A stretch of DNA of 64,000 bases, taken from Hysterangium stoloniferum. Lineage: Eukaryota > Basidiomycota > Agaricomycetes > Hysterangiales > Hysterangiaceae. The stretch spans positions 124,001 through 188,000 of the forward strand of contig WHVD01000028.1 in assembly GCA_015178975.1 (NCBI GenBank), written 5' to 3'. Shown here piece after piece: positions 20,124 through 64,000 of this stretch. Made by a program: the position numbers and the translations under genes. Under the pieces are notes generated by a model that saw only the letters and a program-made list of their open reading frames with translations, was not told the DNA's origin and searched no databases. Every line of letters begins with the position of its first letter. Within the stretch, counting starts at the first letter, position 1.

Positions 20124-20303
20124 TAACTATGTTAGATAAGCAGACCTGTTTCCTTGTAGATCTAGTACTACCACAATAACAAGACACCATCTGCAATGAC
20201 TCCAGCATTTGAATGTCTCAGAATATTTGATGATGCATGAAGTCGAGGATAATTCAAATGTAAAGATTGATGTGAGTACTGTTGGAGTTGGATATACAAT
20301 ACC

Positions 20304-21126
20304 TGTTATGACTGGAATTCCCGCCAGACTCTGGGTGCTAACTTATACACACCTGCACCCTATATGCATCAATTGTCAGTTTACTGGAATACCTGCCAGA
20401 CTCCGTACATCAGACTTGTCCACATTCAACTTTGTTACTTCATGTATCAGTCACTGGAATACCTGCCAGACTCCATCCCTGTCTATGTCCGACTCTGTCC
20501 CATGCATCAGTCACTGGACCCTGCTTGGAAAACCCATCATCCCTCTAACTGAGCCCTATTTCCATTATAGTCAATGACCTGGCATGATTTGGACTCCGCT
20601 CCTGCTCCATTCCCATTATGGTTTTATGACCTGTCACAATTTGGACTCCACTTCTGTTCCGTTCTGTTCCTAACACCAAGTTTGGTGTTTACTTATCTTG
20701 CTTTATGTTTGTTAGTTTTGTTTTCATTATTACTGGATTTGGTATGTTATTCATTCCACAGTCTATATAGTCTGGCAGATGTTGTACATACAATCCAGTC
20801 AGAAAATCAGCTTAGATTCTCCCCAGTAATCTAGTACATTTTACGCTCTAAACTCCTCTTTGAATTACACTGCTCTCACTAGTCAGAGCCCATGGGCTCT
20901 GACACATGTATCACTCAACCTCTGACTTATCTATCTCGACTCTCTGACCTCTCGGCCCACAACGCCTCAACCTATGAACTCTGCCTGGACTCCCTGGGAT
21001 TCCTGTCTGCCCGTTTGAAACTGGACAACACGATCTCGCAAGGGCGCAGCCTATAAGCTGAAGCCAAGTCCTACCGGATTTCCTGTGGGTTTTTCTGGAA
21101 ACCCTCCGTGTATGCACCCTTAACAA
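20304..21126 (+). mobile_element. Solo LTR, gypsy family I
   Basis: Starts TGTTATGAC and ends CTTAACA, 823 bp. It matches the LTRs at 24587-25444 and 42385-43200 over the whole length, including the CTATATAG promoter box and the CAGCCTATAAGCTGAAGCC block near the 3' end. Flanking 5-mers are ATACC and ATATC, a probable target duplication with one transition. No internal region is attached. The flanks (20126-20303, 21127-21323) have no recognised gene. Confidence 0.85.
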
Positions 21127-22277
21127 TATCTGTGACTGGAGTATCAATAAATGTCAGACTGTTATAAAAGCACTGGTTGCTATTCCTCAGTAAAAGTGAC
21201 TTCTGAATATATTGCCTTCAAATTCATGTATCACATTGGACCAATTTTAATCACAATATACTTGTAGACCAATTAGATCCCATCACAAAGTATATCATTA
21301 AAATGAATTAAAATGTACATAAATGTTATGACCAGAATACCTGCCAGACTCCAGGCACTACCCTATAGGCACCCACACCCTTTACACACCAGTTATCAGT
21401 TTACTGGAATACCTGCTGGAACCCAGACATCAGACCTGTCCATGCCTGATGTCACAACCATCACAAGTCACAACATGTCACAAACATTCAAAGGTAATAT
21501 TCGACAACTCTTCGATTCATCGAATTCGACTCGATAAACCCAAACATTATTTGACAACATTGAATCTCTTTTGACATGTCTCATTTCAATGTCATGAATG
21601 ATTTCATTATTAAGGAGGTTGTCCGTAATCATTATTGTTAAGTTTTCGTGGTGCTGTTCCTAGACCATATAACTTTCTGTTTGTCTGAGTGAGGTGGCAG
21701 TACTCATTGTAAACGGATAAGGACTAAATAAATACAAATAGACCTTATGTAACCCATAGTACGTGGTGAATCCCCAATGCTGCGACCCGAGCCCTAATGC
21801 TCGCAATCCATCACTAATCCGAAATTCCAGAAAAGTCAACAATTATAATATCAGATGTTTACTGGTAAAATTTATATTTCTACAAAACTCCATCTTTAAA
21901 TAGTGATATATCCTCTGAGAATATTATATTATTAACCACCAACCATAAGAAATAATTCTCCATATTACATCCTAAACAATTCAGAGTCAATTAATAGAAC
22001 CTATTGTATATGGATTTCCAAGTTCTGTAAATACTTACTAATGCTTTTGTTGTTAATTTGTTTTTTAAAAGCTAAACTGTAGTTATTTCCTAGTAAAATA
22101 TGTGGTTTATAATTGGAAGTTTTTCATCCTATGGCCTTCTTTATTAAGTGAAATCACCTATATATTCTGGGTATGTTGAATCAAGTAGAAATCTGTTCAG
22201 ATTGACAGATCCATTCCAAAGTAATACATATGTATTTAGAGGTGCCAATGATATACATATGCATGGAATGGACTATC

Positions 22278-23742
22278 TGTTACTGTTAGGGTATGTACAT
22301 GGCAGGTTTCTGGAGAAACCCACAGGATATCTGGTAGGACTTGGCTTCAGCTTATAGGCTGTGCCCTTGCGAGATCGTGTTGTCCAATTTCAGACAGGTA
22401 GACGGGAATCCTAGGGAGTCCAGGTGGGGTTTGTGGGTCGAGGGGTCATAGGTTGGAGGTCGTGGGTCGAGAGGTCGGGAGTCGAGATAAATAAGAGAGA
22501 TAGATGCATCGGAGCCTGTGGGCTCCGACTAGCATGAGCGGTGTAATTCAAGTAGGAGTTTAGAGTGGAAAATGTATTAGATTACTGGGGGGAATCCAAG
22601 CCGATTTTCTGACTGGATTGTATGTACAACATCTGCCAGACTATATAGATTGTGGAATGAATGACATACCAAATCCAGTAATAATGAAATGAAACTAGCA
22701 AAACATGAAATGAGAATAGTAAACACCAAATTTGGTGTTAGGAATGGGATGGAATGGAGCGGAGTCTGAATTGTGACAAATCATAAACCATAATGGGAAA
22801 TGGAGTGGGACCAGAGTCCAAATTGTGACAGGTCATTTGACTAAAATGGGAACAGGGCTCTGTTAGAGAGATGATGGGTTTTCCAAGTGGGGTCTGGTGA
22901 CTGACATGTGGGATGAGGTCGGACATAGACAGGGGTGGAGTCCAGTGGGTATTCTGGTGACTGATACACAACATAATGAAGTCGAACGTAGACAAGTCTG
23001 ATGTACAGAGTCTGGTGGGAATTCTGGTAAACTGACAATTGGTGCGTATGGGGCATGGGTGCATATAAGTTAGTGTGAGAGGTATGGCGAAATACACTCA
23101 GGAAATATAGTCGGATGAGCTCTTACTATATTTCCTTTATTATTTCTATTTTCTCTCTTTTATTATATCTATAATTAGTTTGACAACCTATGTATGCGGT
23201 ACATCGACTCTTGTGGGCGCACACATGCCAGACTTATGTATTCTAGTGCCCGTAGTTTAGAACTCAGACACTTTTTACACTGCAACCACGACTTACCCAG
23301 ACACCCATTAGTGTCCTGTAAGTTGTGATTGGTGTATCGTCTTGACCGTCACAGACGGGCTTTAGCTATCTACTCTATCAGAGTTTTGAACTGTACCAGT
23401 CGAAACTCAATCCTTATCGCAACTCGCATGGACCACATCCATGCTATTCTATTATTCGACTCTCTAGTACTCTACTTTACTCTTGAGCAGTCGTTCAGAA
23501 TCGCACTTGACAGTCGATTCTACTTATTCGTTTTAGCTCTCTACCTTATTCTAGATAGCTACTTCCTTCTACCGTATTGAACTAAGTAGTCAATACGCGT
23601 TCATTCTGTATTAGACTTCAACAGTCAATACATCTTAGTGTCGTACCTAAACGGTCAATATTCTTCGTATATAGAACGGTTAGAACTTCCACTACTCTTC
23701 ACAGTTAGTGCCCGGAGTCCAGCAGGAATTCCAGTCGTAACA
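22278..23742 (-). mobile_element. Solo LTR family I (reverse), itself interrupted
   Basis: Reverse-oriented family I LTR flanked by CTATC at 22273-22277 and 23743-23747. It carries six extra bases at the left edge before the usual TGTTAGG. It is interrupted by another solo LTR at 23074-23703. Confidence 0.8.
23074..23703. mobile_element. Solo LTR family IV (630 bp)
   Basis: Starts TGTGAGAGG, ends CTCTTCACA, and is flanked by perfect GTTAG duplications (23069-23073, 23704-23708). It sits inside the family I LTR. It is the innermost layer: outer LTR, F2a, Harbinger-like, LTR I, LTR IV. Confidence 0.85.
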
Positions 23743-24586
23743 CTATCTAAAGGTATCTATCTTTTAAAAGTATTAGTGTTTCAAACTACTAATTTTTTTT
23801 ATTGTCTACTTGTATCCAGAAAGATTCTTTAGTTTGTAATATACAAGGGAGTTTAAAACTTTCAAAAAGTTTTAAAAACCAAATTATGTTTGAATCACAT
23901 CCCAGATGTTTAAATGACCTTTAGAGTATATTAGAATTTGGTATACTTAATATTTTTCAGATATCCTCCTAAATCATAATATAGTCATAGCGATATGAAG
24001 AAAAGCATAAAAGGGCCATGAAAGGAGCAAGGGAAGTCAGTCAAAATATCTGTAAAATTAGTGTCATATTGATAATCTAACTTGTCATAACTTCTTTGAC
24101 AACACTTCCGTGAGCTCTTGTGACTGGTAATAGCCTCTTACTTCATTGACAGGGCGAATATATACATTGTTGAATGAGGCTTTCAAATTTGACTAATAGA
24201 ATAATATTCAACTGTATTGAAGGATATTCGATTCATGACAGTATATTTCAACTATCGACTGTTGATGAAGCCCAGGATGTGATCTGAAACTACCAAAGCA
24301 TCGAGTACCACAGCACTTCAATACATGGCCCCCATTTCTTCACTGAGAACTATTCAGCCATTGCGAATTCCAGTTTCTCCATTGACCAAAACTTGAAGAG
24401 CTATGAGGTCTTCAATTCGAGAACCTGAAGAAGTTCAAGAAGAGCCGATTTTGCCTATTCAAGAATCCAAGTCTCCTTTAACACCTCTGCCTGAGTCTCC
24501 ATCTCCCAAACCTGTTATGCCCGATGATGAAACAATGCTACAACATTTTGGAGATGCCCTCAGAAAAGTATTGAAGGAGCAGATGT

Positions 24587-25444
24587 TGTTACGACCGGAC
24601 AATCCCACCGGACTCCGGGCACTAACCTGTACGCCCCCACGCACTACAAGCACCAATCGTCTGTTTATAGGATTTCCTGCCTGGACTCCGTTACGACAAG
24701 ACTTGTTACGTTCGACCTCATTACGACACATATCAGTCACTGGACTTCCCCGGACTCCGTCTCTGTCTATGTCTGTCTTCATCCCACGCATCAGTCACCG
24801 GTCCCCGCTTAGAATCCCGCCACCGCTCTAATCGAGCCCCGTTCCCGTTTTAGTCAAATGACCTGTCACGATTTAGGACTCCGCTCCCGCTCCATTTCCT
24901 GTTATGGGTTATGCTTTGTCACGATTCAGACTCCGCTCCATTCCGTTCCATTCCTAACACCAATTTGGTGTTTACTATTCCCGTTTCATGTTTTGTTAGT
25001 TTCGTTTCGTTATTACTGGATTTGGTATGTCATGCATTCCACGGTCTATATAAACTGGCAGGTTGTACATACAATCCAGTCAGAAAATTAGCTTAGATTC
25101 CCCCCAGTAATCTAATAATATTTTCCGCTCTAAAACCTTACTCGATTCACATCGCTCGCACTAGTCGGAGTCCACGAGCTCCGGCACATCTATCTCTCTC
25201 AACCAACTCGACTCACGACCCACGACCTCCGACTTACGACCCATGACCTCCGACTTACGACCCACGACCCCCGACTTATGACCTACGACCCACGAACCCC
25301 ACCTGGACTCCCCGGGATCCCCATCCGTCCATTTGAAATTGGACAACACGATCTAGCGAGGGCACAGCCTATAAGCTGAAGCCAAGTCCTACCAGATATC
25401 CCGCGGGTTTCTCCAGAAACCCGGCCTGTGTGTGTATCCTAACA
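24587..25444 (+). mobile_element. Solo LTR family I in F2a gag
   Basis: 858 bp, starts TGTTACGACC, ends ATCCTAACA, with perfect GATGT target duplications (24582-24586, 25445-25449). It has a promoter box CTATATAA and the conserved CAGCCTATAAGCTGAAGCC block at about 25366. Confidence 0.92.
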
Positions 25445-27472
25445 GATGTCTTTGAAGGAGCCTGAAATTACAGTGAATAAGCCCAAAGAGTTTACCGGAG
25501 AAGAACCTTTGATGTTAAAGAATTTCATCGCTCAATGTGAAATGGTTTTTTGATCTTGACCAAAATCATTTGAATCCAATCAATTGAAAATTATGATGGT
25601 ATTTCCGGAAAATGGCTCAAGAGTGGTGGCAACCTTATCTATTAAATCCTCCAATTCCCTTTCCATCCTTCCTTGTGGATTATCTCGATTTTCTAGATGA
25701 ATTATATGCTCAATTTGGAGAAATTGATGCAGAAGGAGAAGCCAAAGAAAAAATTGACAATCTTTGAATGAAAGCTCATCATCATGTTGTAAAGTATTCA
25801 ATTCAATTTACAAGCCTCACTGCTCAAACTTGATATGATGAATTCACTTTACAACAACAATTTTATAAAGGACTTCCAAATTGAATTATGGGTGAAATAG
25901 TGAAGCTTCAAGTTCAACTGGAGAGTTTTACCGAATTGTGAACGGCAGCCTTTTGACTTGATTCTTACTATTGGATGTGAGAAAATGAATGACAACGTGA
26001 AACAGAATCAAGTTCAACTCTGCAAAGATTCAAAAGAAGACAATTGACAATGCCTTTGACTTATCCTTCAACATCATGAACATCTTTGACTTCAAAACTG
26101 ACAACTTCGACTTCAAGAATAATTAGGCCTTCAACTCAAGTGAAACCATCTTCAACAATTCTAGGATCCAATGGATGATTACTTCCTGCTGAATGAGAGA
26201 GAAGATTTAAAGAAGGATTATGTATATTATGTGGAGAAAAAGGCCATTCAGTGAGGGATTGCCTGAAAAGAAAAACTTGTCAAATAGCAAAAGAATGAAT
26301 CGTTGAAGTTCAAGATTTGACAACTCAATCCAATCAGTCGAATCAAACATCAAATACTCAATTGGAAAATTGAAAAGGAATACTCTTCAGACATGTGAAG
26401 AGTATCGAAGAAAACTCGATCACATTGAAAAAGATTCCTGTGTAATATTACAAGTGGTAACAATTTCTGATTCTTTAATTATCGAACTTAAATCAAAGAA
26501 AATTCTGAAAATAAAAGCATTAATTGATTCAGGGTCTAGTCATATTTTTATGGACAAAACATTTGCATGACAAAACATTCTACCTTTCAATCAATTGAAA
26601 AATTCAGTATCATTGAAATTAACTAATGGATCAATTCCAACATCAGGACAAATTACGCATACAACTACATTACAAGTTTACTTTCCATCCGGGCAAACTC
26701 AAGAATTACAATTCTTCTGAACCAATCTCGACTCATCTTGTCAAGTATTAGGACTCAACTGGCTGAAGCAATACAATCCTATATTGCTCGAACCTACTTC
26801 GACACCTTCGACAAATCCAAATCCAATCTAATCATCAATTGAAACGTTATCGGAAGAAAAGCATGCTTCGATCTCAGCGAGTGATTCATCTACATCTGAA
26901 AAAATTGTGAAGAATTGAAATCCAAGACTATTAATCTGAATATCAATATAGTCAATCAGAAGACATTCCTATGAACTGCAAAAGCAAAAGATTCTCAAAC
27001 CTTTGTGGTCTTCATTCACAATGAATCTTTCAAGACTTGTAAGGCCTCTCAACATACCGAACATTCTGACCAAATATTCTGACTTCTCGGATGTTTTCAA
27101 CAAAAAGGAAGCTGAAGCTTTACCTCAACATTGAAGTTATGATCACGCTATCCCATTAGAAGAAGGAACTACTCCACTGATGGGACCGATCTATTTGTTA
27201 TCTGAGACAGAACTTCAAGTGCTACGAGAATATCTCTGAGAAAATCTTTTGAAGAAATTTATTCAATTGTTGCAATCTCCCACTGGCACACCAATTTTAT
27301 TCATTAAGAAAAAAGATGGAAGCCTATGACTTTGCATCGACTATTGAAGACTCAACAAAATTACTTGAAAAAATCGATATCCACTTCCTTTAATTCCTGA
27401 TCTTTTGGATCAACTTCGAATGGTGAAATATTTTATGAAAATCAATCTCTGAGGCACCTATAATTTAGTTAG

Positions 27473-32555: not shown

Positions 32556-33904
32556 TTATTAGCGATATTTGAATCTTTCAAAATTTGGGTACATTATTTT
32601 GAAGGAACAAAAGAACCAATTGAAGTTTTGATGGATCACAAGAATCTCAAATATTTTGTGACAACTCGAATTTTGTCTCAACAACAAGCTTGGTGGGCAG
32701 AATATTTATTGACTTTCAATTTAATCATTTGATTTTGACTGGGAAAACTAAATTTGAAAACAGATATTCTTTTGAGAAGAAATGACATTTACCCAAATGA
32801 ACTTGACTATTTGAAAAGGAATCTGACTAATCTTTGACCAGTATTTATGAATGAACAAATCAAAGCTTCCTTATGTGCTGTTAGGATATGTACAGGGCGG
32901 GTCTCTGGAGAAACCCGCGGGATATCCAGTAGGACTTGGCTTCAGCTTATAGGCTGCACCCTCGCTAGACTGTGTTGTCCAATTTCAGATGGATGGATGG
33001 GAGTCCCGGGGAGTCTGGGCGGGGGTCATGGGTCGAGGGGTCGTAGGTCGGAGGTTGTGGGTCATGAGTCGAGACTGGTGAGAGAGATAGATGCGCTGGA
33101 GGCCATGGGCTCCAACTAGTGCGAGCGATGTGAATCAAGTAGCGTTTTTAGAGCAGAAAATGTATTAGATTACTGGGGATCTAAGCTGATTTTCTGACTG
33201 GATTGTATGTACAACATCTGCCAGTTTAAATAGACCGTGGAGTAAATGTTATACTGAATCCAGTAATAATGAAATGAAACAAGCAAAACATAAAACGGGA
33301 ATAGTAAACACCAAACTGGTGTTAGGAATGGGACGGAACAGAGCGGAGTGTGAATAGTGACAAATCATAAACCATAACGGGAAATGGAGCGGGAGCGGAG
33401 TGCGAATCGTGACAGGTCATTTGACTAAAATGGGAATGGGGCTCAGTTAGAGGGATGACAGGTATTCTGAGTGGGGTCCAGTGACTGACACGTGGGATGA
33501 GGTCAGAATTAGACAGAGATGGGGTCCGGTGAGTATTCCGGTGACTGAAACACAACGTAACAAAGACGAATGTAGACGAGTCTGACATACGTATGGAGTC
33601 CAGTGGGAATTCCAGTGAACTGATAATGGGTGCATATAGGGCGTGGGTGCGTATAAGTTGGTGCCCGGAGTCCGGCGGGATTTCTGGTCGTAACAGTACC
33701 CTCCCTTTATGCCGAAGTCCCAAAGAGGCTCTAGACCTCGAGAAGGTTCTTGTCGGCTACGTGCATGTGTCAAAGGTCATGTCAGTTACACGTATGTGTC
33801 AAGAAGTCATGTGATCTGGAAGGTAAGGTTCAAACGCGACGAGCCTATATATAAATTTGAAAAAATAGAAATTCTTCTGCTTTATTACCCCCATCATCGG
33901 CGAA

Positions 33905-34436
33905 ATGGGACCAAAGCCAATGCCAAGACAGGCGATGCCAACCGCCGGGCCTTCCACGGGTACTGCACATCGGGCGACTTGGAGCGCGGCCCAACTCTTG
34001 GTGTGGCGAGAAGAGCAACGCCAACTTCGCAAAGAAGCAGAAAGGGAAGCCAGGGAGGCCGAGGAGGCCTTAGACAGGGAGTACCAGGTGGCATTGGCCG
34101 TGGAGGAGGCTGAGAGGCAGAGGCAGAGAGATGAGGAGGAGGCTGTGTGGGTGGCTGTGGAGAAAGCACAGGTGACTGCAGACAGAGCTGCAATTGTCGC
34201 GGGAAAGGTAAGTCCCAATATTTCAACTTGTCATTTTTTTTTTTGACTTGGCATTTTCAGCGCAAGGTGACAGAGGTGGAGTCCGAGTCCGAGGGGGAGC
34301 CAGAGAGCCCCCAAAAGGCAAGCCTCAGGTCCGTGGGATAACCGTGGAACTGACTGTATCAACAGAAGGCAAGGAAGGTGGCACCAGTCCATCTTCCGAC
34401 GTGGAACGATCTGCAGTGTTCCGGTTGTAATAATTA
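33905..34436 (+). CDS. Antisense accessory gene of the gypsy element, left-arm copy (partial fossil)
   Basis: It runs opposite to the pol of the left half, between the LTR and the chromodomain. It begins MGPKPMPRQAMPTAG and enters a long charged helix (REEQRQLRKEAEREAREAEE...EEAERQRQRDEEEAV), a strong coiled-coil candidate. A GTAAGT...TTTTCAG stretch (34208-34260) that looks like an intron is followed by an acidic block (EVESESEGEPESP). The cysteine cluster found in the right-arm copy is not present here. It is part of a broken element and is described as a fossil. Confidence 0.6.
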
Positions 34437-37400
34437 CCGAGTTTCGTGGCCAAAATCCATGAAGTTTCTTCATCGGTGCCCTCGTAACCCGCCCACTTGA
34501 CCAAGTAAAGCAGTTTACAAGTGTGTCGACGCTTATCAATTTTTGAATCTAAAATCTGTGAGATTTCAAACTCAGGTTCTCCGTCAATAATGACCGGAGG
34601 AGGGGGAGATTGCACGTGATCTGGGATAGTGTTAGCAGTACAAGGTTCTAACATAGAAACATGAAATACTGGGTGTACCGCGCGCATGCTATCCGGAAGC
34701 CGTAGAGTCCAGGAGACTGAACCTACTTGTGCGATAATTTCAAATGGACCTAAATATTTTTCAGCACGCTTTTTCGATGGATGGGTAGTCTGGAAGAATT
34801 GAGCTTTGACAAAAACACAATCGCCAATCTTGAAGTTTGGTGGCAGGATCTGGTGTTTGTCCACTGAATGTTGGTATTGCTCTTGGGTGGATAGCATTGC
34901 AGTCCAGAGTTCCTCGTGGAGCTTGTGGAGGTCCGTGGTGAACTCTTGAGTGCGAGCAGAGGTGAGATTTCATTCTGGATGTACTGTAATATTTGGATTA
35001 TATCCTTTATTTGCAAAGAACGGGGAAACACCAGTAGTGGCTGAAGGTGCATTGTTGTAAGCAAACTCTGCAAGTGGTAACAAGGATTTCCAATTGTCCT
35101 GTTGGTAGTTGCAATATACATGGAGATATTATTCCAATGTCTGGTTGACACGTTCGGTTTGTCCGTCACCTTCCGGTGGATGTCCAGACGTGAAATGTAA
35201 TGTCATGTCCAAGGATTTCCCAAGGGATCTAAAGAAGTGAGACACGAACTCTGATCCTCGATTGGAAGTCATGTGGGATGGAACTCCATGCTTGGAAAAT
35301 AAGTGGATAATGAAAAGTTCCACTAACTGCATGGATGTAATTGTGTCATAAGCAGGGATGAATATACCTTGTTTTGAGAATCTGTCAACAACGACTAGAA
35401 TGGCGGAAAAGCCTTCAGAATCTGGTAGGTGTTCAATGAAATCCATAGAGATAGAATTCCATGGATGTTCCGGTACTGGGAGTTGTTTCAAAAGGCCGTA
35501 TGGCTTGTGTCGCTGAGATTTCGAGCAGGGACAAGTAGTGCAAGATTTACAATAGTGCTTAATGAATCCACGGAGTCCAGGCCAAGTGTATTCTCTTCTT
35601 ATTAATGATAGAGTTTTGTTGTACCCGAAATGTCCTGAGAGTGGATGATCATGTTTGTATTGAAGGATCCTGAGGCGGAGGCCGTTGGAGTCCGGTACAT
35701 AGATTCGATCGTCAAGTCTAATGAAACCATGTTGATCAAGAGACCACCGGGGTTGACTGGGGTCCACGGGATTGTCAAGGTGAGCTTTAGTAATTGGGTC
35801 TAGTGGAATTGCCGATAGAATATCTTGATGTAACTTCTAAATATCCATAATGATAATTCCATGGACAATGGGATTGATGAGGAAAGTTGTGCAGACCAAT
35901 GCGGTAAGTTGTTGATTCATGAAAATAGGTTTCAGGTTGTGCAGATTTACCATGGCATAGTCGTTGCTCCCCTCTTTAGGATAGACGTCCCATCGTCTAG
36001 TTAAAGCATTGGGTTTGCCGCCGAGATGGCTGGGTCAAAAACAGATAATCATGTTGAAAGCAGATAGATATTCAGACCAGCGGGCCTGCCGGTGGGTCAA
36101 AAGTTTTGTGGTAGAAAAGTATTCCAGGTTTTTGTGATCTGTTACAACATCAATAGGAGTTCCCGAGCCTTCCAAATAGTGTCGCCACGCTTTGAAAGCT
36201 GAAAAGATTGCCAGGAGTTCCTTATCATGAACGTCATAGTTGAGCTCTGCTCCGGTGAAAGTCTGGGACAGAAAAGCCACGGGATGGACTTCTCCATCAG
36301 AGTCCTGATAGAGAGAATGGCTCCAAGTGCATAATCCGAGGCATCCATTTCGACAATGAGCGGGAAGTCTGGTTTCCAATGCGACAGAATAGGAGCTGTA
36401 GAAAAAGAATTTTTTAAAAGATTGAAAGCTTTTTGACACTTATCATTAAAATACCCTTACATGTAAGATGGGTAAGGGGTACCGTGATGTGGAATATCCA
36501 CGGATAAAATGTCGGTAAAAATTGGCAAATCCGAGGAAGGATTGTATATCTTTAACTTTTCAGGGTTCGGGCCAATCTTTGATGACTTGCACTTTAGTTT
36601 CGTCCATACGGAGTCCATCAGGTCCCATCATGAAACCTAGGTATTCCATGGAGTCTGTGTCAAAAGTACATTTTTTTCCATTTGTGAATAAACCATGTTG
36701 TCTGAGTCTCCGGAGAACTTCACGGACTTGTTTGTCATGGTCCGCGGGATTCTCAGAGTAGATAAGAATGTCGTCCAAGTAAACAATGATGCATACATCG
36801 AGCATGTCAGAGAAAATGTCATTGATAAAACGCTGAAAAACAGACGGAGCATTGGTGAGTCCAAAAGAGATCACCAACCACTCAAAGGCCCCATAGCGGG
36901 TTCTAAAAGTGGTTTTCTATTCGTCGCCTGCAGCAATCCGGACCAAATGATAGGCGTGTTTGAGATCTATTTTGGTGTAAATCTGGGCATTCCGCGGAGC
37001 ATTGAGCAGATCAGATATAAGTGGGAGTGGATATTTATCCTTTTTGGTGACAGCATTGAGTCCTCTAAAATCAACACATAGTCGAAGGGATCCATCCTTT
37101 TTTCTGACACCAGAACAGGTGCTCCAAGACAAGACTTTGAGGGTCTGATAAAACCTATGGACAAATGTTCATCCAGGAAATCGCGGATTGCGGAAAGTTC
37201 CGTGGATGAGAGCGGGCAAATATGTCCTAGGGGTGGCTGGGCGCCATCTTCAAGATCGATTTTTAAGTCGTATTCTCTGTGAGGCAGAAGCTGGTCAGCT
37301 TTCCACTTGCTAAAAACATCCGCGAAGTCATGATATTTCTCCGGGATGCCTTCTAGGTCAGCGGCTTGCTCAGATTCAGATACCGGGGTTGAAAAACGTC

Positions 37401-40131
37401 CAGTTGCTTCATCAATTTTTAAGTTGATAGTGAACGCCTGGGACCCATCCATTTTTGAAGCCCTAATAAAAGCTGCAGCATTAATCAGAGAAATGGATGG
37501 AGGTGCTGTGGGTTCCGGGGAAGCCATTGGTGCCGTAGGGATCACAGGAGTCCTCAAGACTGCAGGTGCCGGGAAGGCCATGGGTGGTGCCATGGAGGCC
37601 GAGACAGGCGCAGTTTCCTCCGCTGCCGCGGGAGTCCAGAATGTTATACTGTTAGCTATCCAGTCAATCAACGGATTGTAGCGGGTAAGCCAGTTATGTC
37701 CTAGGACCACCGAGCAACTTGAGTCTAACTGGGTCACATAGAAAGTGATCAATTGAGATGTTCCACATGGGAAACAGATGGGTAAATCACAAGCTTGGGT
37801 AACAACTGAATTACTTGTGCCATCACAGAGGTGGAGACCGACAGGATTTATCGAATAAGTTGACAAAGAATTTTTTTGCGTGAATTTTGTATCTAAAAAA
37901 CAATGAGTCGAGCCAGAATCTATAAGAGCTGAAAAAACGAATTTCGGAATCATATTAGACATAAGTTTAACAAAAAATGAATCAGAATGCGAAAGAGCAG
38001 ATGCATTGAGACGGGTAAACTCTTGAATGCACGGAGAGGCAACGCAACCCCCAACCGTGCGGAGTCCGTGGGGTTGCTTACTCTTTTTTCGAGTCGGAAG
38101 CCAGTTTGTCCTTCGACGGGGTTTCCGTGGAGGCCTTGGCTGTTCGACCCTTTGAAGAGTTTGCTTTTGCCAGTGGACATTCCGGGACTTGATGACTGGG
38201 TTTCCCACACAAGAGACAGAGGTTGTTGTCCATATGATGTTGTCTTTCCTGTGGGGTCAATTTGCCATCGGGTCCGAATTTGCCTGAGAGGTCAGGTTTT
38301 CTGGCTTGCTTGCCGGACTGTTGATCCTTGTTATTGTCCTTATTGTTATTGTTGTTGTTATTGTTTGAAGAGTTTTTATCGTTCTTCTTGTCGGATTGCG
38401 TGGAGTTTTGGTTGCTGGTTGACAAATTGTTGTTGTTGGTTTTATTGGCCGTGGACTTATTCACTTTGTCCGTGGAGGTCTCGTGGGCAACTTCTGCATG
38501 ACGTTCCCAATAGTGTGCATCCACGTTTTGAGCTTTGAGGCACATATGGGACAGGGTTTTTGGCTTGCCATCTTCTCCTTTCGAGACTTCGTCTTTAAGG
38601 TGGGATGGCAGACCAGCATAGAATTGGTGGCGGAGAGCGGGATTGCCCCACTGACAGTGAGCTGCAAGATTATTGAATTGGACAATATAGTCCGTGATGC
38701 GCTGCGTGTCCTTCATACGAAGATTTGTGAGACTATTCTCGGCTTCTCCTGTCGGGTCATACGGGCCAAAGTTGGTTTCAAGCTCCTCAACAAAAGCATC
38801 CCAATTGTCGAGCCAGAGCGGCTCTTTAACTAGACGATGGGACATCTATCCTAAAGAGGGGAGCAACGACTATGCCACGGTAAATCTGCACAACCTGAAA
38901 CCTATTTTCACGAATCAACAACTTACCACATCGGTCCGCACAACTTTCCTCATCAATCCCATTGTCCGTGGAATTATCATTATGGATATTGAGAAGTTAC
39001 ATCAAGATATTCTATTGGCAATTCCACTAGACCCAATTACTAAAGCTCACCTTGACAATCCCGTGGACCCCGGTCAACCCTGGTGGTCTCTTGATCAACA
39101 TGGTTTCATTAGACTTGATGATCGAATCTATGTACCGGACTCCAATGGCCTCCGCCTCAGGATCCTTCAATACACACATGATCATCCACTCTCAGGACAT
39201 TTCGGGTACAACAAAACTCTATCATTAATAAGAAGAGAATCCACTTGGCCCGGACTCCGTAGATTCGTTAAGCACTATTGTAAATCTTGCACTACTTGTC
39301 CCCGCTCGAAGTCTCAGTGACACAAGCCATACGGCCTTTTGAAACAACTCCCGGTACCAGAACATCCGTGGAATTCTATCTCTATGGATTTCATTGAACA
39401 CCTACCGGATTCCGAAGGCTTTTCCGCCATTCTAGTCGTTGTTGACAGATTCTCAAAACAAGGTATATTCATCCCTACTTATGACACAATTACGTCCATG
39501 CAGTTAGCGGAACTTTTCATTATCCACGTATTTTCCAAGCACAGAGTTCCATCCCACGTGACTTCCGATCGAGGATCAGAGTTTGTGTCTCACTTCTTTA
39601 GATCCCTCGGGAAATCCTTGGACATGACATTACATTTCACGTCCAGACATCACCCGGAGGGGGATGGACAAACCGAACGCGTCAACCAGACATTGGAACA
39701 ATATCTCTGCATATATTGCAACTACCAACAGGACAATTGGAAAGTTTGCTTACAACAATGCACCTTCAGCCACTACTGGTGTTTCCCCGTTCTTTGCAAA
39801 TAAAGGATATAATCCAAATATTACAGTACATCCAGAACGAAATCTCACCTCTGCTCGCACTCAAGAGTTCACCACGGACCTCCACGAGCTCCACGAGGAA
39901 CTCTGGACTGCAATACTGTCCACCCAAGAGCAATACCAACATTCAGTGGACAAACACCAGATCCCACCACCAAACTTCAAGATTGGTGATTGTGATTTTG
40001 TCAAAGCTCAATTCTTCCGGACTACCCATCCATCGAAAAAGCTTGCTGAAAAATATTTAGGTCCATTTGAAATTATCGCACAAGTAGGTTCAGTCTCCTG
40101 GACTCTATGGCTTCCAGATAGGATGCGTGTG

Positions 40132-40714
40132 TGTTAAGTGCCGTGTCGGGAACTTATTCCGGAACTATCGGGAAGTCACCGGGAAGTCGGAAACTCGTGG
40201 ATAGGGTCAGGACGTCGGCTTCAGCTTATGTGCTGCGCCTCTACGCAAACGCTCAGTGTCCTTAATTTCGGAAGTGAACTAACGACGGAAGATATGGATA
40301 TTCAGAGTTCCGAAGAGTTCCGAATATTGAGCGTACAGAAAGATGGGAGGAGGAATAAGAAACTAAGTCGATATCAGATCTAAAGTAAAGTACAAATTCG
40401 CGGAAACTAATATAAGTCTACTCATTATTGTACTACCAACTGAGACCATAATAAGACGGAAACGGAAGTGTTCTTAAAACAGAAATACAATAAGACATAT
40501 TAGGAAGACAATATTCCGAGACGGGAATACAACAACAAACGAGTGAATACTTGTCAATGGACAAATTACCAAATGCGGAACAAACGAAGAACGGGGATGA
40601 TACGGTAACTATGATGTTCCGTAGTCGGAGGTCAAAGTCGGAAGTCGGGGATCGGAAGTCGGGAATGGGAGACCGGAAGTCGGATATTGAAACATCCGGG
40701 AACGGGTCGTAACA
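40132..40714 (-). mobile_element. Solo LTR family VIII inside the palindromic element
   Basis: 583 bp, edges TGTTAAG and CGTAACA, perfect GTGTG target duplications (40127-40131, 40715-40719). The uninterrupted site is visible in the left arm near 34680. It contains the reverse of the CAGC...TAAGCTGAAGCC block (40214-40239) in diverged form. It inserted after the palindrome formed, because the left arm lacks it. Confidence 0.9.
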
Positions 40715-41220
40715 GTGTGGTACACCCGGTATTTCATGTTTCTATGTTAGAACCTTGTACTGCTAACACTATCCCAGATCGCGTGCAATCTCCGCCTCCT
40801 CCGGTCATTATTGACGGAGAACCTGAGTTTGAAATCTCACAGATTTTAGATTCAAAAATTGATAAGCGTCGACGCACTTGTAAACTGCTTTACTTGGTCA
40901 AGTGGGTGGGTTACGAGGGCACCGATGAAGAAACTTCATGGATTTTGGCCACAGAACTCGGTAATGCCACAGAAATCGTTACTGACTTTCATATAGCTTA
41001 CCCACTCAAACCTGGACCATTATCATCTCTCTGACCGCACTCCATGGTGCCCGTGTTACGTTTGGACTCATTTTCATTTTTCCCTGTCGCCCTATGTCTC
41101 TCTTTGCTTTTACAGGTTCTGACATGTTCTTCCAGTCCTTAAGCGGTTTTCCCGCAGAGTTTGACTTTTATGTTTTTTCACGCTTTACTTTTATGATTCA
41201 AATTATTCTTTTATTCTATA

Positions 41221-42184
41221 CTACTTTTTCAGTCTACATTTATGGGACTGTTTTTTCCCTGCTTCCTCAGCCATCTCCTCAGGGAGCTCCACGACCTCCG
41301 CGGCAACCCCGTCCTCATCTGACCTGGCATCCTCAGAACTCCCAACTTGTGGCTCTTCATACACATAGCCGCCATACTCTGCCAGGAATCTCCAAAACTC
41401 CTCATGGAGTCCACACAGTTCCTTTGACACCACTATGTGGACCTTGTTGCTCTTCCGGAGCAACTCGTTTTGGGCCTCGATGCCCTCGGTGATCTGTCCC
41501 AGGACTTCGTTCAACCCAGAAAACCCTCCGACCCACTAATGTCTCGCACCCTGGACCCCGCAGCCTGCTCGTGAACGAGTGAGCACCTTGCCTTGAAGTG
41601 CGCGCATTGGTAGCAGCCCGGACCCCAGCCAGACTTTCGGTTGCATTCCGTGTTCCGGTTGTTACAACCGGAACACCGCGGATCGTTCTGCATTAGAAGA
41701 TGGACTGGCACTGCCTTCCTTGCCTTCTGTTGATACGGTCAGTTCCACGGTTATCCCACGGACCTGAGGCTTACCTTTTGGGGGCTCTCTGGCTCTCCCT
41801 CGGACTTGGATTCCACCTCTGTCGCCTTGCGCTGAAAATGCCAAGTCAAAAAAAAAAATGACAAGTTGAAATATTGGGACTTACCTTTCCTGCGACAATC
41901 GCGGCTCTCTCCGCAGCCACCCATGCTTTCTCCACGGCCACCCACACAGCCTCCTCCTCATCTCTCTGCCTCTGCCTCTCAGCCTCCTCCGTGGCCAATG
42001 CCGCCTGGTACTCCCTGTCTAAGGCCTCCTTGGCCTCCCTGGCTTCCCTTTCTGCTTCTTCGCGAAGTTGGCATTGCTCTTCTCGCCGTGCCAAGAGTTG
42101 GGCCGCACCCCAAGTCGCCCAATGTCCAGTACCGGCAGTCGGCATCGCCTGTCTTGGCATTGGCTTTGGTCCCATTTTGTCCAT
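41221..42184 (-). CDS. Antisense accessory gene with Zn2Cys6-like cluster (right-arm copy, fossil)
   Basis: Read on the minus strand, opposite to pol. The first block (42184-41880) starts MDKMGPKPMPRQAMPT and carries a charged coiled-coil helix (REEAEREAREAKEALDREYQ). After a GTAAGT...TTTTCAG stretch comes an acidic block (VESKSEGEPESP). Next is a cysteine block (41675-41583) reading C-x2-C-x6-C-x9-C-x2-C-x6-C (RCSGC...GCYQCAHFKARCS), the spacing of the fungal binuclear zinc cluster. A last block (41514-41221) has a helix (LGQITEGIEAQNELLRKSNK) and an acidic tail. The blocks lie in order, separated by short GT...AG stretches that resemble introns. DNA binding is inferred from spacing only. 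The shell of basic residues normal between cysteines 2 and 3 of Gal4-type clusters is weak (NNRNTE). Confidence 0.65.
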
Positions 42185-42370
42185 GATGGGGGTAATAAAG
42201 AAGAAGAATTTCTATTTTTTCAAATTTATATATAGGCTCGTCGCGTTTGAATCTTACCTTCCAGATCACATGACTTCTTGACACATACGTGTAACTGACA
42301 TGACCTTTGACACATGCGTGTAGCTGACAAGAACCTTATCGAGGTCTAGAGCCTCTTTGGGACTTCGGCA

Positions 42371-42384
42371 TAAAGGGAGGGTAC
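42371..42384 (+). other. Polypurine tract before the right family I LTR
   Basis: AAAGGGAGGG plus TAC immediately before the LTR start at 42385, as in Ty3/gypsy plus-strand priming sites. The mirror copy is at 33696-33709. Confidence 0.8.
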
Positions 42385-44501
42385 TGTTACGACCAGAAAT
42401 CCCGCCAGACTCCAGGCACCAACTTATACGCACCCGCGCCCTATATGCACCCATTATCAGTTCACCCGACTTCCCACTGGACTCCGTACATCAGACTCGT
42501 CTACGGTCATCTTCGTTATGTTGTGTTTCAGTCACCAGAATACTCACCAGACCCCATCTCTGTCTAATTCCGACCTCGTCCCGCGCATCAGTCACTGGAC
42601 CCCACTCAGAATACCTGTCATCCCTCTAACCGAGCCCCATTCCCATATTAGTCAAATGACCTGTCATGATTCGGACTCCGCTCCCACTCCATTTCCTGTT
42701 ATGGTTTATGATTTGTCACTATTTGGACTCCGCTCTGTTCCGTCCCATTCCTAACACCAGTTTGGTGTTTACTATTCCCGTTTTATGTTTTGCTTGTTTC
42801 GTTTCATTATTACTGGATTCGGTATGACATTTACTCCACAGTCTTTTTAAACTGGCAGATGTTGTACATACAATCCAGTCAGAAAATCAGCTTAGATTCC
42901 CCCCGGTAATCTAATACATTTTCCGCTCTAAAAACCCTACTTGATTCACACCACTCACACTAGTCAGAGCCCATGGGCTCTGGCGCATCTATTTCTCTCA
43001 CCAGTCTCGACTCACAACCCATGACCTCCGACCTACGACCCCTCAACCCACGACCCCCTCCCAGACTCCCCGGGACTCCCATCCATCTGTCTGAAATTGG
43101 ACAACACGATCTAGCAAGGGCGCAGCCTATAAGCTGAAGCCAAGTCCTACCGGATATCCCGCAGGTTTCTCCAGAGACCCACCCTGTACGTATCCTAACA
43201 TGTGCAACATATGTATTATCTTCCAATAGTGAGAAAAGCTACTCTTATTATGGATACAGATCAACTACTAAAAGATATAGTGAAAGCTCAAAAAGAAGAT
43301 CAATTCACTTTTGATAAAATTTGACAAATGTCTATCAAACAATATATCGAGATTTCTTTTGGCCACAACTCCGACAAGATATTCAAGATTTTATTCAATC
43401 ATGTGTAACATGTACAAAATCGAAAACTCCACGACATCGACCCATTGGATTACTTAAGCAACTTCCAATCCCTCTTCAACCATGGCATTTGATCTCAATG
43501 GATTTTATTGAACAATTACCAACCTCGAATGGTTACGACTCAATACTTGTAATCGTCGATCGACTTTCAAAACAAGCAATATTCATTCCAACTTATATTA
43601 CAATCAATGCTCCTGAACTTGCTTGACTTTTCATATTACATGTCTTTTCAAAACATGGAGTTCCAAGTCATGTAACTTCCAATCGAGGATATGAATTTGT
43701 ATCGCATTTCTTTCAATCTCTTGGAACAGCACTCAACATTAGACTTCATTTTACTTTGGGATATCATCCTGAAGGTGATGGACAGACCAAATGAGTCAAT
43801 CAAACTCTTGAACAATATTATGAATATATTGCAATTATCAACAAGACAATTGGGCCGAATTACTCCCTTTAGCCAAATTCACTTTTCCGAAACAACTGGT
43901 GAAACACCATTTTTTGCTAATAAAGGTTATCATCTGTTATTAGAAATTCACCTTGAAAAAGATCTAGCTTCAGCTCTAGCTTGCAATTATACAACAGATC
44001 TTGAAGCTCTACATAAACATCTCAAATCAAATATCCAAAAAGCACAAATATGTTATCAAAAATATTCTGACATACATCAAAAAGAATCATTTGATTTCCC
44101 AATCCATTCTCAAGCCTTTGTATGATCCAACTTTATTCGAACAACTCGACCATCGAAAAAACTATCAGAAAAACTATTAGGCCCATTTGAAATCATTGCT
44201 CAACCAGGATCCCATTCATATACATTAAAACTTCCCAATCATCTCAAAGTAATTCATCCTGTCTCTCATGTTTCAATGTTAGAACTGTTTTATCCCAATA
44301 CTTTCCCAAATTGAAAACAACCACCTCCACCAATTTACATTGAAGAAGAACCTGAATATGAAATTTGAGAAATTTTAGATTCAAAATTCAATAAAAGATA
44401 TAAAGATTCATTACGATATTTAGTTGCTTGGTTAGGATACAAAGAGACAGATAAAGAAACTTCATGGTTAGGATCTCAAGATCTCAAACATGCTTTTGAC
44501 C

Positions 44502-62097: not shown

Positions 62098-64000
62098 GTT
62101 ATGCCTTTTGGACTATGCAACACTCTGGCAACCTTTCAACAATTAATGAATGAAATATTTTCAGATTTACTTGATATTTGGGTAATTATCTATCTCAATG
62201 ACATACTAATATTTTCTGACAATCTCAAGGAACATTTATGACATGTTCAAGAAGTTCTTTGATGGCTTCAACAAAATTGATTATTTGCAAAACCCAAAAA
62301 ATGCGAATTTCACAAAACCAGTGTCAAATTTTTAGGATATGTTATTTCTCCTCAAGGTGTATATATGGATGAAGAAAAAAATCAAAGTTATTCAAGATTG
62401 GCCCGAACCACAAAAAGTCCGCGATATTCAATCATTTTTAGGATTTGCAAATTTCTATTGAAGATTTATTCCAAATTATTCTGAAATCGTTTTACCATTG
62501 ACTCAACTTACATACTTGAAAAAAGGTTCAATGGCATTTTGACAAAAAATGTTGACATGCATTTAACTATTTGAAAAAAGAATTTACTACAGCTCCGATT
62601 TTAATTCATTGGAATCCAGATTATAAACCCATACTCAAAACTGACACTTCCAATCATGCCGTAGCTTCAATATCTTCTATGCAAACTCCTGATAATGAAA
62701 TACATCCAGTCGCTTATCATTCAAGAACTCTTTCAACCTCCGAAATTAATTACGACACTTAAGATAAAGAATTATTAGCAATATTTCAAAATTTGGCGAC
62801 ATTATTTCAAAGGAACAAAAGAACCAATTGAAGTTTTAACGGATCACAAGAATCTCGAATATTTTGCGACAACTCGAATTTTGTCTCGACGACAAGCTCA
62901 ATGGGCAGAATATTTATTGACTTTCAATTTAATTGTTCGATTTCGACCGGGAAAACTAAATTTGAAAACAGATGTTCTTTCAAGAAGAAATGATGTTTAT
63001 CCGAATGAACCCAACTACTCGAAAAAGAATCCGACTAATCTTTGACCGGTATTTACAAATGAACAAATTCAAGCTTCCTTACATGCAACATATTATCTTC
63101 CAATAGCCAGAAAAGCTACTCTTATTATGGATACGGATCAACTATTGAAAGATATATTCAAAGCTCAAAAGAAGATCAATTTACTCTCAACAAAATTTGA
63201 CAGATTTCTGACAGTACCGAAGAAGATTGGCAAAAGAACAAACAAGATTTTTTATGTTTCCAAAACAGAATTTACATTCCCGATTATCAAAATCTCTGAC
63301 TTCGAATTCTTCAATCATGACACGATCATATTACCACAGGCCATTTCGGTCAAACAAAAACATATTGAACAATATATCGAGATTTCTTTTGGCCATGACT
63401 CCAACAAGATATTCAAGATTTTATTTGATCGTGTGTAACATGTACAAAATCGAAAACTCCACGACATCGACCCGTTGGATTACTTAAGCAACTTCCGATT
63501 CCTCTTCGACCATGGCATTCGATCTTGATGGACTTTATTGAACAATTACCGACCTCGAATGGTTACAACTCAATACTCGTAATTGTCGATTGACTTTCGA
63601 AACAAGCAATATTCATTCTAACTCATACTACGATCAATGCCCCCAAACTCACTCGACTTTTCATATTACATGTCTTTCAAAACATGGAGTCCCAAGTCAT
63701 GTAACTTCGGATCGAGGATCTGAATTCGTGTCCCATTTCTTTCGATCTCTTGGAACAGCGCTCGACATGAAATTACATTTCACTTTGTGATACCATCCTG
63801 AAGGTGAGGGACAAACCGAACGAGTCAATCAAACTCTTGAACAATATTTACGAATATATTCCAATTATCAACAAGACAATTGGGCTGAATTACTTCCTTT
63901 AGCTGAATTCGCTTACAACAATGCACCTTCTGAAACAACTGGTGAAACACCATTTTTTGCTAATAAAGGTTATCATCCATTGTTAGAAATTCACCCTGAA

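What the first reader, a model, noticed from the sequence alone, without database searches (positions are those of the whole stretch)
32874..43205. A gypsy insertion with inverted LTRs and one perfect target duplication: integration of a palindromic copy?
Seen: the left LTR is reversed, the right LTR is forward, both outer edges are the same LTR terminus, and TGTGC flanks both sides. The inverted arms (about 3.1 kb of shared sequence) surround a single-copy gag/pol middle. The arms meet at 38824-38830, where CTTTAAC is common to both sides. Known: gypsy integrase makes 5 bp duplications and normally uses one U3 and one U5 end. Inference: a palindromic cDNA, from template switching or self-primed fold-back synthesis, with two U5 ends was integrated as one piece. 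Ordinary inversion after insertion would not place the same LTR end at both edges with an intact duplication.
Basis: partly seen in the sequence, partly recalled or inferred. Interest (0 to 1): 0.9.

Follow-up and report, generated by a model that had tools for sequence, protein, structure and literature searches.

The report
Back-to-back retrotransposon inserted in one piece
A jumping element that normally carries its two end repeats in the same direction is found here as a mirror-image dimer that most likely entered the chromosome in one step, and a second, separate case in the same genome suggests a repeatable error of its copying machinery rather than a freak or an assembly mistake.

Summary
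Window 32879-43200 is a chromodomain gypsy insertion with inverted LTRs. Both outer edges are the U5 terminus, a perfect 5-bp duplication (TGTGC) flanks it, and a related target copy without the insertion lies at 62780-63209. New here: a second composite of the same design at G000:C420:285133-291808, from another subfamily, with GTTGG on both sides and a different junction carrying about 40 nt of templated filler. Of 14 listed outward-facing U5 pairs within 20 kb, only these 2 have identical 5-mers; of 10 inward pairs, none. In each composite the arms are sisters (bootstrap 100), and their LTRs differ no more than those of the one normal element compared. Best reading: a minus-strand cDNA switched onto another minus strand, or folded back, giving a linear dimer with two U5 ends that integrase inserted normally. 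End joining of two truncated cDNAs is not excluded. My searches of the held papers found direct-repeat template-switch complexes but no inverted U5-U5 insertion.

The parts
32572..32873 (+). Left flank: target, a different gypsy element
   Evidence: 87% identical to 62780-63081
32874..32878 (.). Left target-site duplication TGTGC
   Evidence: Sequence
32879..33695 (-). Left LTR, U5 terminus at the outer edge
   Evidence: Inverted match to 42385-43200; U3 start TGTTACGACC after GGGAGGGTAC
32879..36006 (-). Left inverted arm (LTR, 3' region, chromodomain, integrase)
34431..34433 (.). Point where the left arm lacks the 693-bp block kept in the right arm and in 8 of 8 spanning loci
34325..34969 (-). 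Tf2-1-like SH3 and chromodomain reading frame
   Evidence: PF24626, PF00385
35129..35836 (-). Integrase reading frame (H2C2, core)
   Evidence: PF17921, PF00665
36007..38823 (-). Single-copy middle: RNase H, RT, protease, truncated gag
   Evidence: PF17917, PF00078, PF08284, PF03732
38824..38826 (.). Junction of the two halves, CTT microhomology
   Evidence: Compared with four gag copies and three RNase H/IN copies; only the window's own place covers the whole junction query among 40 scored genome hits
38824..43200 (+). Right inverted arm (integrase, chromodomain, 3' region, LTR)
39321..39803 (+). Integrase core reading frame of the right arm
   Evidence: PF00665
40127..40719 (.). Private solo LTR of another family (40132-40714) with GTGTG duplication, later insertion in the right arm
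   Evidence: absent from the left arm and from the 8 loci that span the place
40615..41034 (+). Chromodomain reading frame of the right arm
   Evidence: PF00385
40966..41658 (+). 693-bp block present in 8 of 8 spanning loci, deleted from the left arm
42385..43200 (+). Right LTR, U5 terminus at the outer edge
43201..43205 (.). Right target-site duplication TGTGC
43206..43333 (+). Right flank: the same target gypsy continues
   Evidence: 43193-43333 is 84% identical to 63076-63209; joined flanks collinear
62780..63209 (+). Related target copy without the insertion (empty site)

Best explanation
An LTR retrotransposon cDNA that is an inverted dimer was integrated as one piece. Inferred steps: minus-strand DNA starts at its tRNA primer, so its 5' end is the U5 terminus; it copies LTR, integrase and RT and stops in gag. 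Its 3' end then switches, with 3 bp of pairing, onto a minus-strand DNA (the twin in the same particle, or its own earlier part) at the RNase H/integrase boundary and copies that strand out to its U5 end. The second strand is filled in. Integrase treats the two U5 ends as it would a normal U3/U5 pair and makes the usual 5-bp duplication. Shown: the anatomy, the duplication, the collinear target, the sister arms, and the second case. Inferred: the cDNA route.
For: U5 terminus at both edges with identical 5-mers in two separate loci. Collinear empty-site relative for the window case. The C420 composite has a different junction: RNase H | about 40 nt of templated filler from the element's own 3' region | chromodomain, as expected of strand switching. 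Arms are sisters: 1.5 kb of 3' region plus LTR, ultrafast bootstrap 100 for both composites among 31 rows; window arms also 96 on an integrase-chromodomain segment among 25 rows. Transversions between arms whose two states both occur in at least 3 other copies are 1 of 15 and 1 of 10, against 5 of 19 and 13 of 29 in two independent sister pairs (Fisher p = 0.011 on 2 of 25 against 18 of 48). Arm LTR divergence of 7.8% and 8.0% is no higher than the 9.6% of one normal element's LTR pair.
Against: No reads were seen. Counting all differences, most have both states in at least 3 other copies (87 of 114 in the window arms, 100 of 128 in C420); this is also so in pairs sharing one insertion flank (44 of 50, 102 of 129) and in independent pairs (120 of 156, 118 of 160), so recurrent transitions make that measure uninformative and the transversion test rests on small numbers. 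LTR ends share the terminal repeat TGTTA/TAACA, so a repair switch inside those 5 bases would mimic a U5 edge (sequences). For C420 no empty site was found. The route (fold-back, inter-strand switch or end joining) is not resolved. In a second terminus scan neither of 2 outward pairs matched (100 of 162 hits listed, read by eye).
Confidence: 0.68

Rival explanations
1. Two truncated, mostly double-stranded cDNAs (each with a good U5 end) were joined at their broken inner ends by host end joining, and the dimer was then integrated.
For: 3-bp microhomology in the window and templated filler in C420 are also typical of microhomology end joining (recalled). All edge evidence fits equally.
Against: Needs two incomplete cDNAs made double-stranded far beyond the PPT-primed segment. 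Sister arms need two near-identical cDNAs.
Confidence: 0.2
2. Two elements inserted at exactly the same 5-bp site in opposite orientation, and a deletion later removed the inner parts.
For: Would give identical 5-mers and a microhomology junction.
Against: Needs an exact double hit in two unrelated loci. No inward U5 pair 5 bp apart was seen among 10 inward pairs (smallest distance 499 bp). Independent copies would not be expected to be sisters, unless later gene conversion made them so.
Confidence: 0.05
3. A normal insertion was broken inside, and fold-back repair copied one arm and switched at the 5-bp terminal repeat TAACA to the original far edge.
For: U3 and U5 ends share TGTTA/TAACA.
Against: Must switch within the last 5 bases in both loci; a repair copy would normally run on into the reverse complement of the duplication and flank (inference).
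Confidence: 0.04
4. Assembly artefact.
For: No reads were available; the family is repetitive (913 terminus matches with up to 2 mismatches).
Against: Matching 5-mers at both edges, collinear target, arms that differ by 5-10% and so are distinguishable, and a second separate locus.
Confidence: 0.03

Closest known systems
Template-switching complex LTR retrotransposons (Sabot and Schulman 2007, PMC1950507; whole text read)
   Same: Composite of two copies, flanked by one 5-bp duplication, outer LTRs alike, attributed to abnormal template switching before a single integration
   Different: Theirs have three LTRs, two direct core sequences and ordinary outer edges; here the copies are inverted, with two LTRs, both edges U5, and no 5' LTR or PBS
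Tf2-1-like chromodomain gypsy (chromovirus) elements
   Same: gag, protease, RT, RNase H, H2C2 integrase, SH3 and chromodomain by Pfam
   Different: Normal members have direct LTRs; this copy has inverted LTRs and is truncated in gag
DIRS elements (inverted LTRs; recalled, plus a search listing only, PMC5633606)
   Same: LTR-type repeats in inverted orientation
   Different: DIRS use a tyrosine recombinase and make no target duplication (recalled); here there is an rve integrase and a 5-bp duplication
Inverted-repeat forms of unintegrated avian retrovirus DNA (recalled from the 1980s-90s literature; one title-phrase search of the held library gave no paper)
   Same: Palindromic retroviral DNA explained by aberrant reverse transcription (recalled)
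   Different: Recalled as unintegrated DNA; here fixed in a chromosome with a target duplication, twice

Membership tests
Chromodomain gypsy LTR retrotransposon | gag, protease, RT, RNase H, integrase in gypsy order, with C-terminal chromodomain | tested here: met
   Pfam hits in that order on the minus strand of the left half
Chromodomain gypsy LTR retrotransposon | Two LTRs in direct orientation, U3 outside left and U5 outside right | tested here: not met
   Both outer edges are U5; LTRs inverted. A relative, C1:149562-158219, has the normal layout with TGACT at its U3 and U5 edges
Chromodomain gypsy LTR retrotransposon | 5-bp target duplication | tested here: met
   TGTGC/TGTGC here, GTTGG/GTTGG at C420
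Template-switching complex (Sabot and Schulman) | Flanking duplication and alike outer LTRs | tested here: met
Template-switching complex (Sabot and Schulman) | Third, internal LTR shared by two direct copies | tested here: not met
   No LTR at the 38824 junction
DIRS-type element | Tyrosine recombinase instead of DDE integrase | tested here: not met
   rve and H2C2 domains found; no recombinase family among the Pfam hits of the 9 reading frames tested
U5-U5 inverted dimer integration | Palindromic cDNA exists before integration | not testable with these tools
   Needs particle or cDNA sequencing

The most novel reading that the evidence does not exclude
LTR retrotransposons have a recurrent side pathway that makes integration-competent inverted dimers with two U5 ends. 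Their integrase accepts such ends in vivo, and the pathway seeds the genome with long inverted repeats that lie under flanking promoters, point their own promoters outward, and could give hairpin RNA that silences the family.
Probability: 0.35. Interest if true: 0.78.

Novelty: new variant of a known kind. Interest (0 to 1): 0.62.

Why it matters
It is genomic evidence that a retrotransposon integrase can complete concerted integration with two identical U5 ends, and that RT strand switching between minus strands (or an equivalent joining) makes dimers that reach the chromosome. It gives a simple signature (outward U5 pair plus identical 5-mer) that can be scanned in any genome as a count of such errors. 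It also suggests a direct route from a retrotransposon to a kilobase inverted repeat, the kind of locus that can start RNA silencing (inference; a passage of PMC11624286, proposes that head-to-head or tail-to-tail insertions might form LTR hairpins that favour silencing).

Tried and rejected
Autointegration: rejected, because the inner junction contains no LTR terminus. Simple inversion after insertion: rejected, because it cannot put U5 at both edges. Recombination between two inverted elements: rejected, because it leaves mixed duplications and normal edges. Arms from two unrelated copies: rejected by the trees. Left-arm 693-bp difference as a subfamily marker: rejected, because 8 of 8 loci that span the block keep it (two of the 8 are the arms of the C420 composite), so it is a private deletion. 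One script run gave nothing (wrong file layout) and was repeated. Counting all arm differences as private or shared: uninformative, because recurrent transitions swamp it. C420 empty site: the joined-flank search found only the locus itself plus a repeat in the right flank, so it could not be tested. Paper searches for inverted, palindromic, tail-to-tail, defective or snap-back forms: six gave no paper; some searches listed 4, 10 and 5, judged from titles and the starts of abstracts, except that passages of PMC11624286, PMC3017797 and PMC12477816 were read, as were passages of PMC5668417. None describes an inverted U5-U5 insertion in what I saw. U3-U3 outward pairs were not scanned (no searches left). 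Host species was not identified.

Full report
What was checked. The window lies at G000:C201:124001-188000 of an unnamed 111-Mb assembly in 554 contigs. The repeat finder and self-BLAST give inverted arms 32879-36006 and 38824-43200 around a single-copy middle, 36007-38823. The left half codes on the minus strand: chromodomain and SH3, integrase, RNase H, RT, protease, and a gag that is cut off at the junction. The right half codes on the plus strand and starts between RNase H and integrase. The LTR is 816-817 bp, starts TGTTACGACC after a purine-rich tract, and ends CCTAACA; after the 5' LTR of one relative the sequence continues GTATT. Both outer edges of the insertion are this CCTAACA (U5) terminus, and TGTGC lies on both sides.

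Target. The flanks belong to a different gypsy element. When joined with a single TGTGC they are collinear with a relative at 62780-63209, which reads CATGC at that place and lacks 4 bases shortly after it. So 10.3 kb entered at one point with a 5-bp stagger. A normal member of the same family, C1:149562-158219, has TGACT at its U3 edge and at its U5 edge, so 5 bp is the family's own duplication length in the one case read.

Junction. Four gag copies and three RNase H/IN copies show the parents' sequence past the join. The whole junction query is matched once among the 40 scored hits; the other 39 match one side only.

A second case. Among the LTR hits, C420:285133 (minus) and C420:291808 (plus) face outward; the flanks are GTTGG and GTTGG. 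Its left half runs from U5 through chromodomain and integrase into RNase H (to 289318). It is followed by about 40 nt that match the element's own 3' region in the orientation of the right half, then by the chromodomain-to-U5 right half from 289356. The arms are 89.5% identical, gaps counted. Junction and target site differ from the window's, and it falls in a different subfamily, so I take it as independent. No empty site for it was found.

Scan. The exact U5 terminus with a leading 5-mer gave 358 matches, of which 334 were listed (24 of the A-partition were not shown). Within 20 kb there are 14 outward U5 pairs, of which 2 have identical 5-mers (the window and C420), and 10 inward pairs, of which none do. 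A random pair of typed outer flanks matches with probability 0.00136. The window case was the given one, so the fair test is 1 match among the other 13, about 0.02 by chance; C420 had been seen before this scan. A related terminus gave 100 of 162 listed hits with 2 outward pairs, neither matching (by eye).

Arms. On 1.5 kb of 3' region plus LTR, of 38 distinct loci 7 were dropped as shorter than 1,450 bp, leaving 31 rows (the loci are the best-scored copies; only 40 of more than 5,000 first-look candidates are scored per search). The window arms are sisters with ultrafast bootstrap 100 and a shared private branch of 0.041; the C420 arms are sisters with 100 and 0.036. On an integrase-chromodomain segment of 25 rows (loci with less than 600 bp of it left out) the window arms are sisters at 96; that tree holds few of the copies ranked highest. 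In whole-genome ranking, the left arm is the best other match of the right arm in both segments, and the right arm is the best other match of the left arm in the LTR segment. In one search the right arm was not among the 40 scored hits of the left integrase segment, whose best other hit scores 2024 bits against 2032 for the arm pair.

Differences between arms. They are mostly transitions (99 of 114 and 118 of 128). Counting all of them, both states occur in at least 3 other copies for 87 of 114 and 100 of 128, which taken alone would not speak for arms identical at entry; but the same holds for two pairs of copies that share one insertion flank (44 of 50, 102 of 129) and for independent sister pairs (120 of 156, 118 of 160), so recurrent transitions hide the signal. 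Transversions are more telling: shared in 1 of 15 and 1 of 10 for the arms, 0 of 4 and 1 of 10 for the flank-sharing pairs, 5 of 19 and 13 of 29 for two independent sister pairs (arms against these two: p = 0.011), and 5 of 17 and 6 of 19 for each window arm against L013, an independent copy. The simplest reading is that the arms were identical, or nearly so, when they entered and decayed since.

Later damage. The right arm gained a solo LTR (40132-40714, GTGTG both sides) and lost 20 bp; the left arm lost 693 bp that 8 of 8 spanning loci retain.

Mechanism. The U5 terminus is the 5' end of minus-strand DNA (established knowledge of LTR reverse transcription). A linear DNA with two such ends is two minus-strand starts joined through their 3' parts. 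That follows if a nascent minus strand stops before the PBS and switches onto a minus strand, its own (fold-back) or its twin's. The filler and the short microhomology fit switching; end joining of two truncated cDNAs would look the same in the final DNA. One arm is always the longer, so arm length does not decide between them. Integrase then makes a normal concerted integration. The product has no 5' LTR and no PBS and so is a dead end for transposition, but it is a kilobase inverted repeat (inference).

Literature. Direct-repeat complexes with one duplication are described by Sabot and Schulman (PMC1950507, whole text). Ten searches of the held open-access library were used (plus nine); the nine on inverted, palindromic, tail-to-tail, defective or snap-back forms showed no inverted U5-U5 insertion in the listings and the passages read. 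One passage (PMC11624286) suggests that head-to-head or tail-to-tail insertions could form LTR hairpins. Subscription papers, including recalled work on avian retrovirus palindromes, are not held, so I do not claim it is absent from print.

Noticed in passing
G000:C179:426361, 473716, 489827, 587922; C334:66132; C346:42533, 60428: Seven listed U5 ends carry the same 5-mer CAGTC (the four whose flanks were read share 10 bases), so one insertion with its flank seems to have been multiplied as a larger repeat unit.
   Followed up: partly
L038 (G000:C541), about 2756-2759: Two LTRs joined tail to tail near their U5 ends (1-798 forward, then 728-1 reverse), another inverted LTR arrangement but with U5 inside.
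   Followed up: no
L011, L014, L021, L059: A second LTR in opposite orientation lies about 270-480 bp beyond the U5 edge, U5 ends facing each other, in 4 of 38 loci examined; possible target preference near LTRs.
   Followed up: no
   Followed up: no
window 20303-25445: Three more diverged LTRs of the same family (77-83% identical) lie close together in mixed orientation.
   Followed up: no
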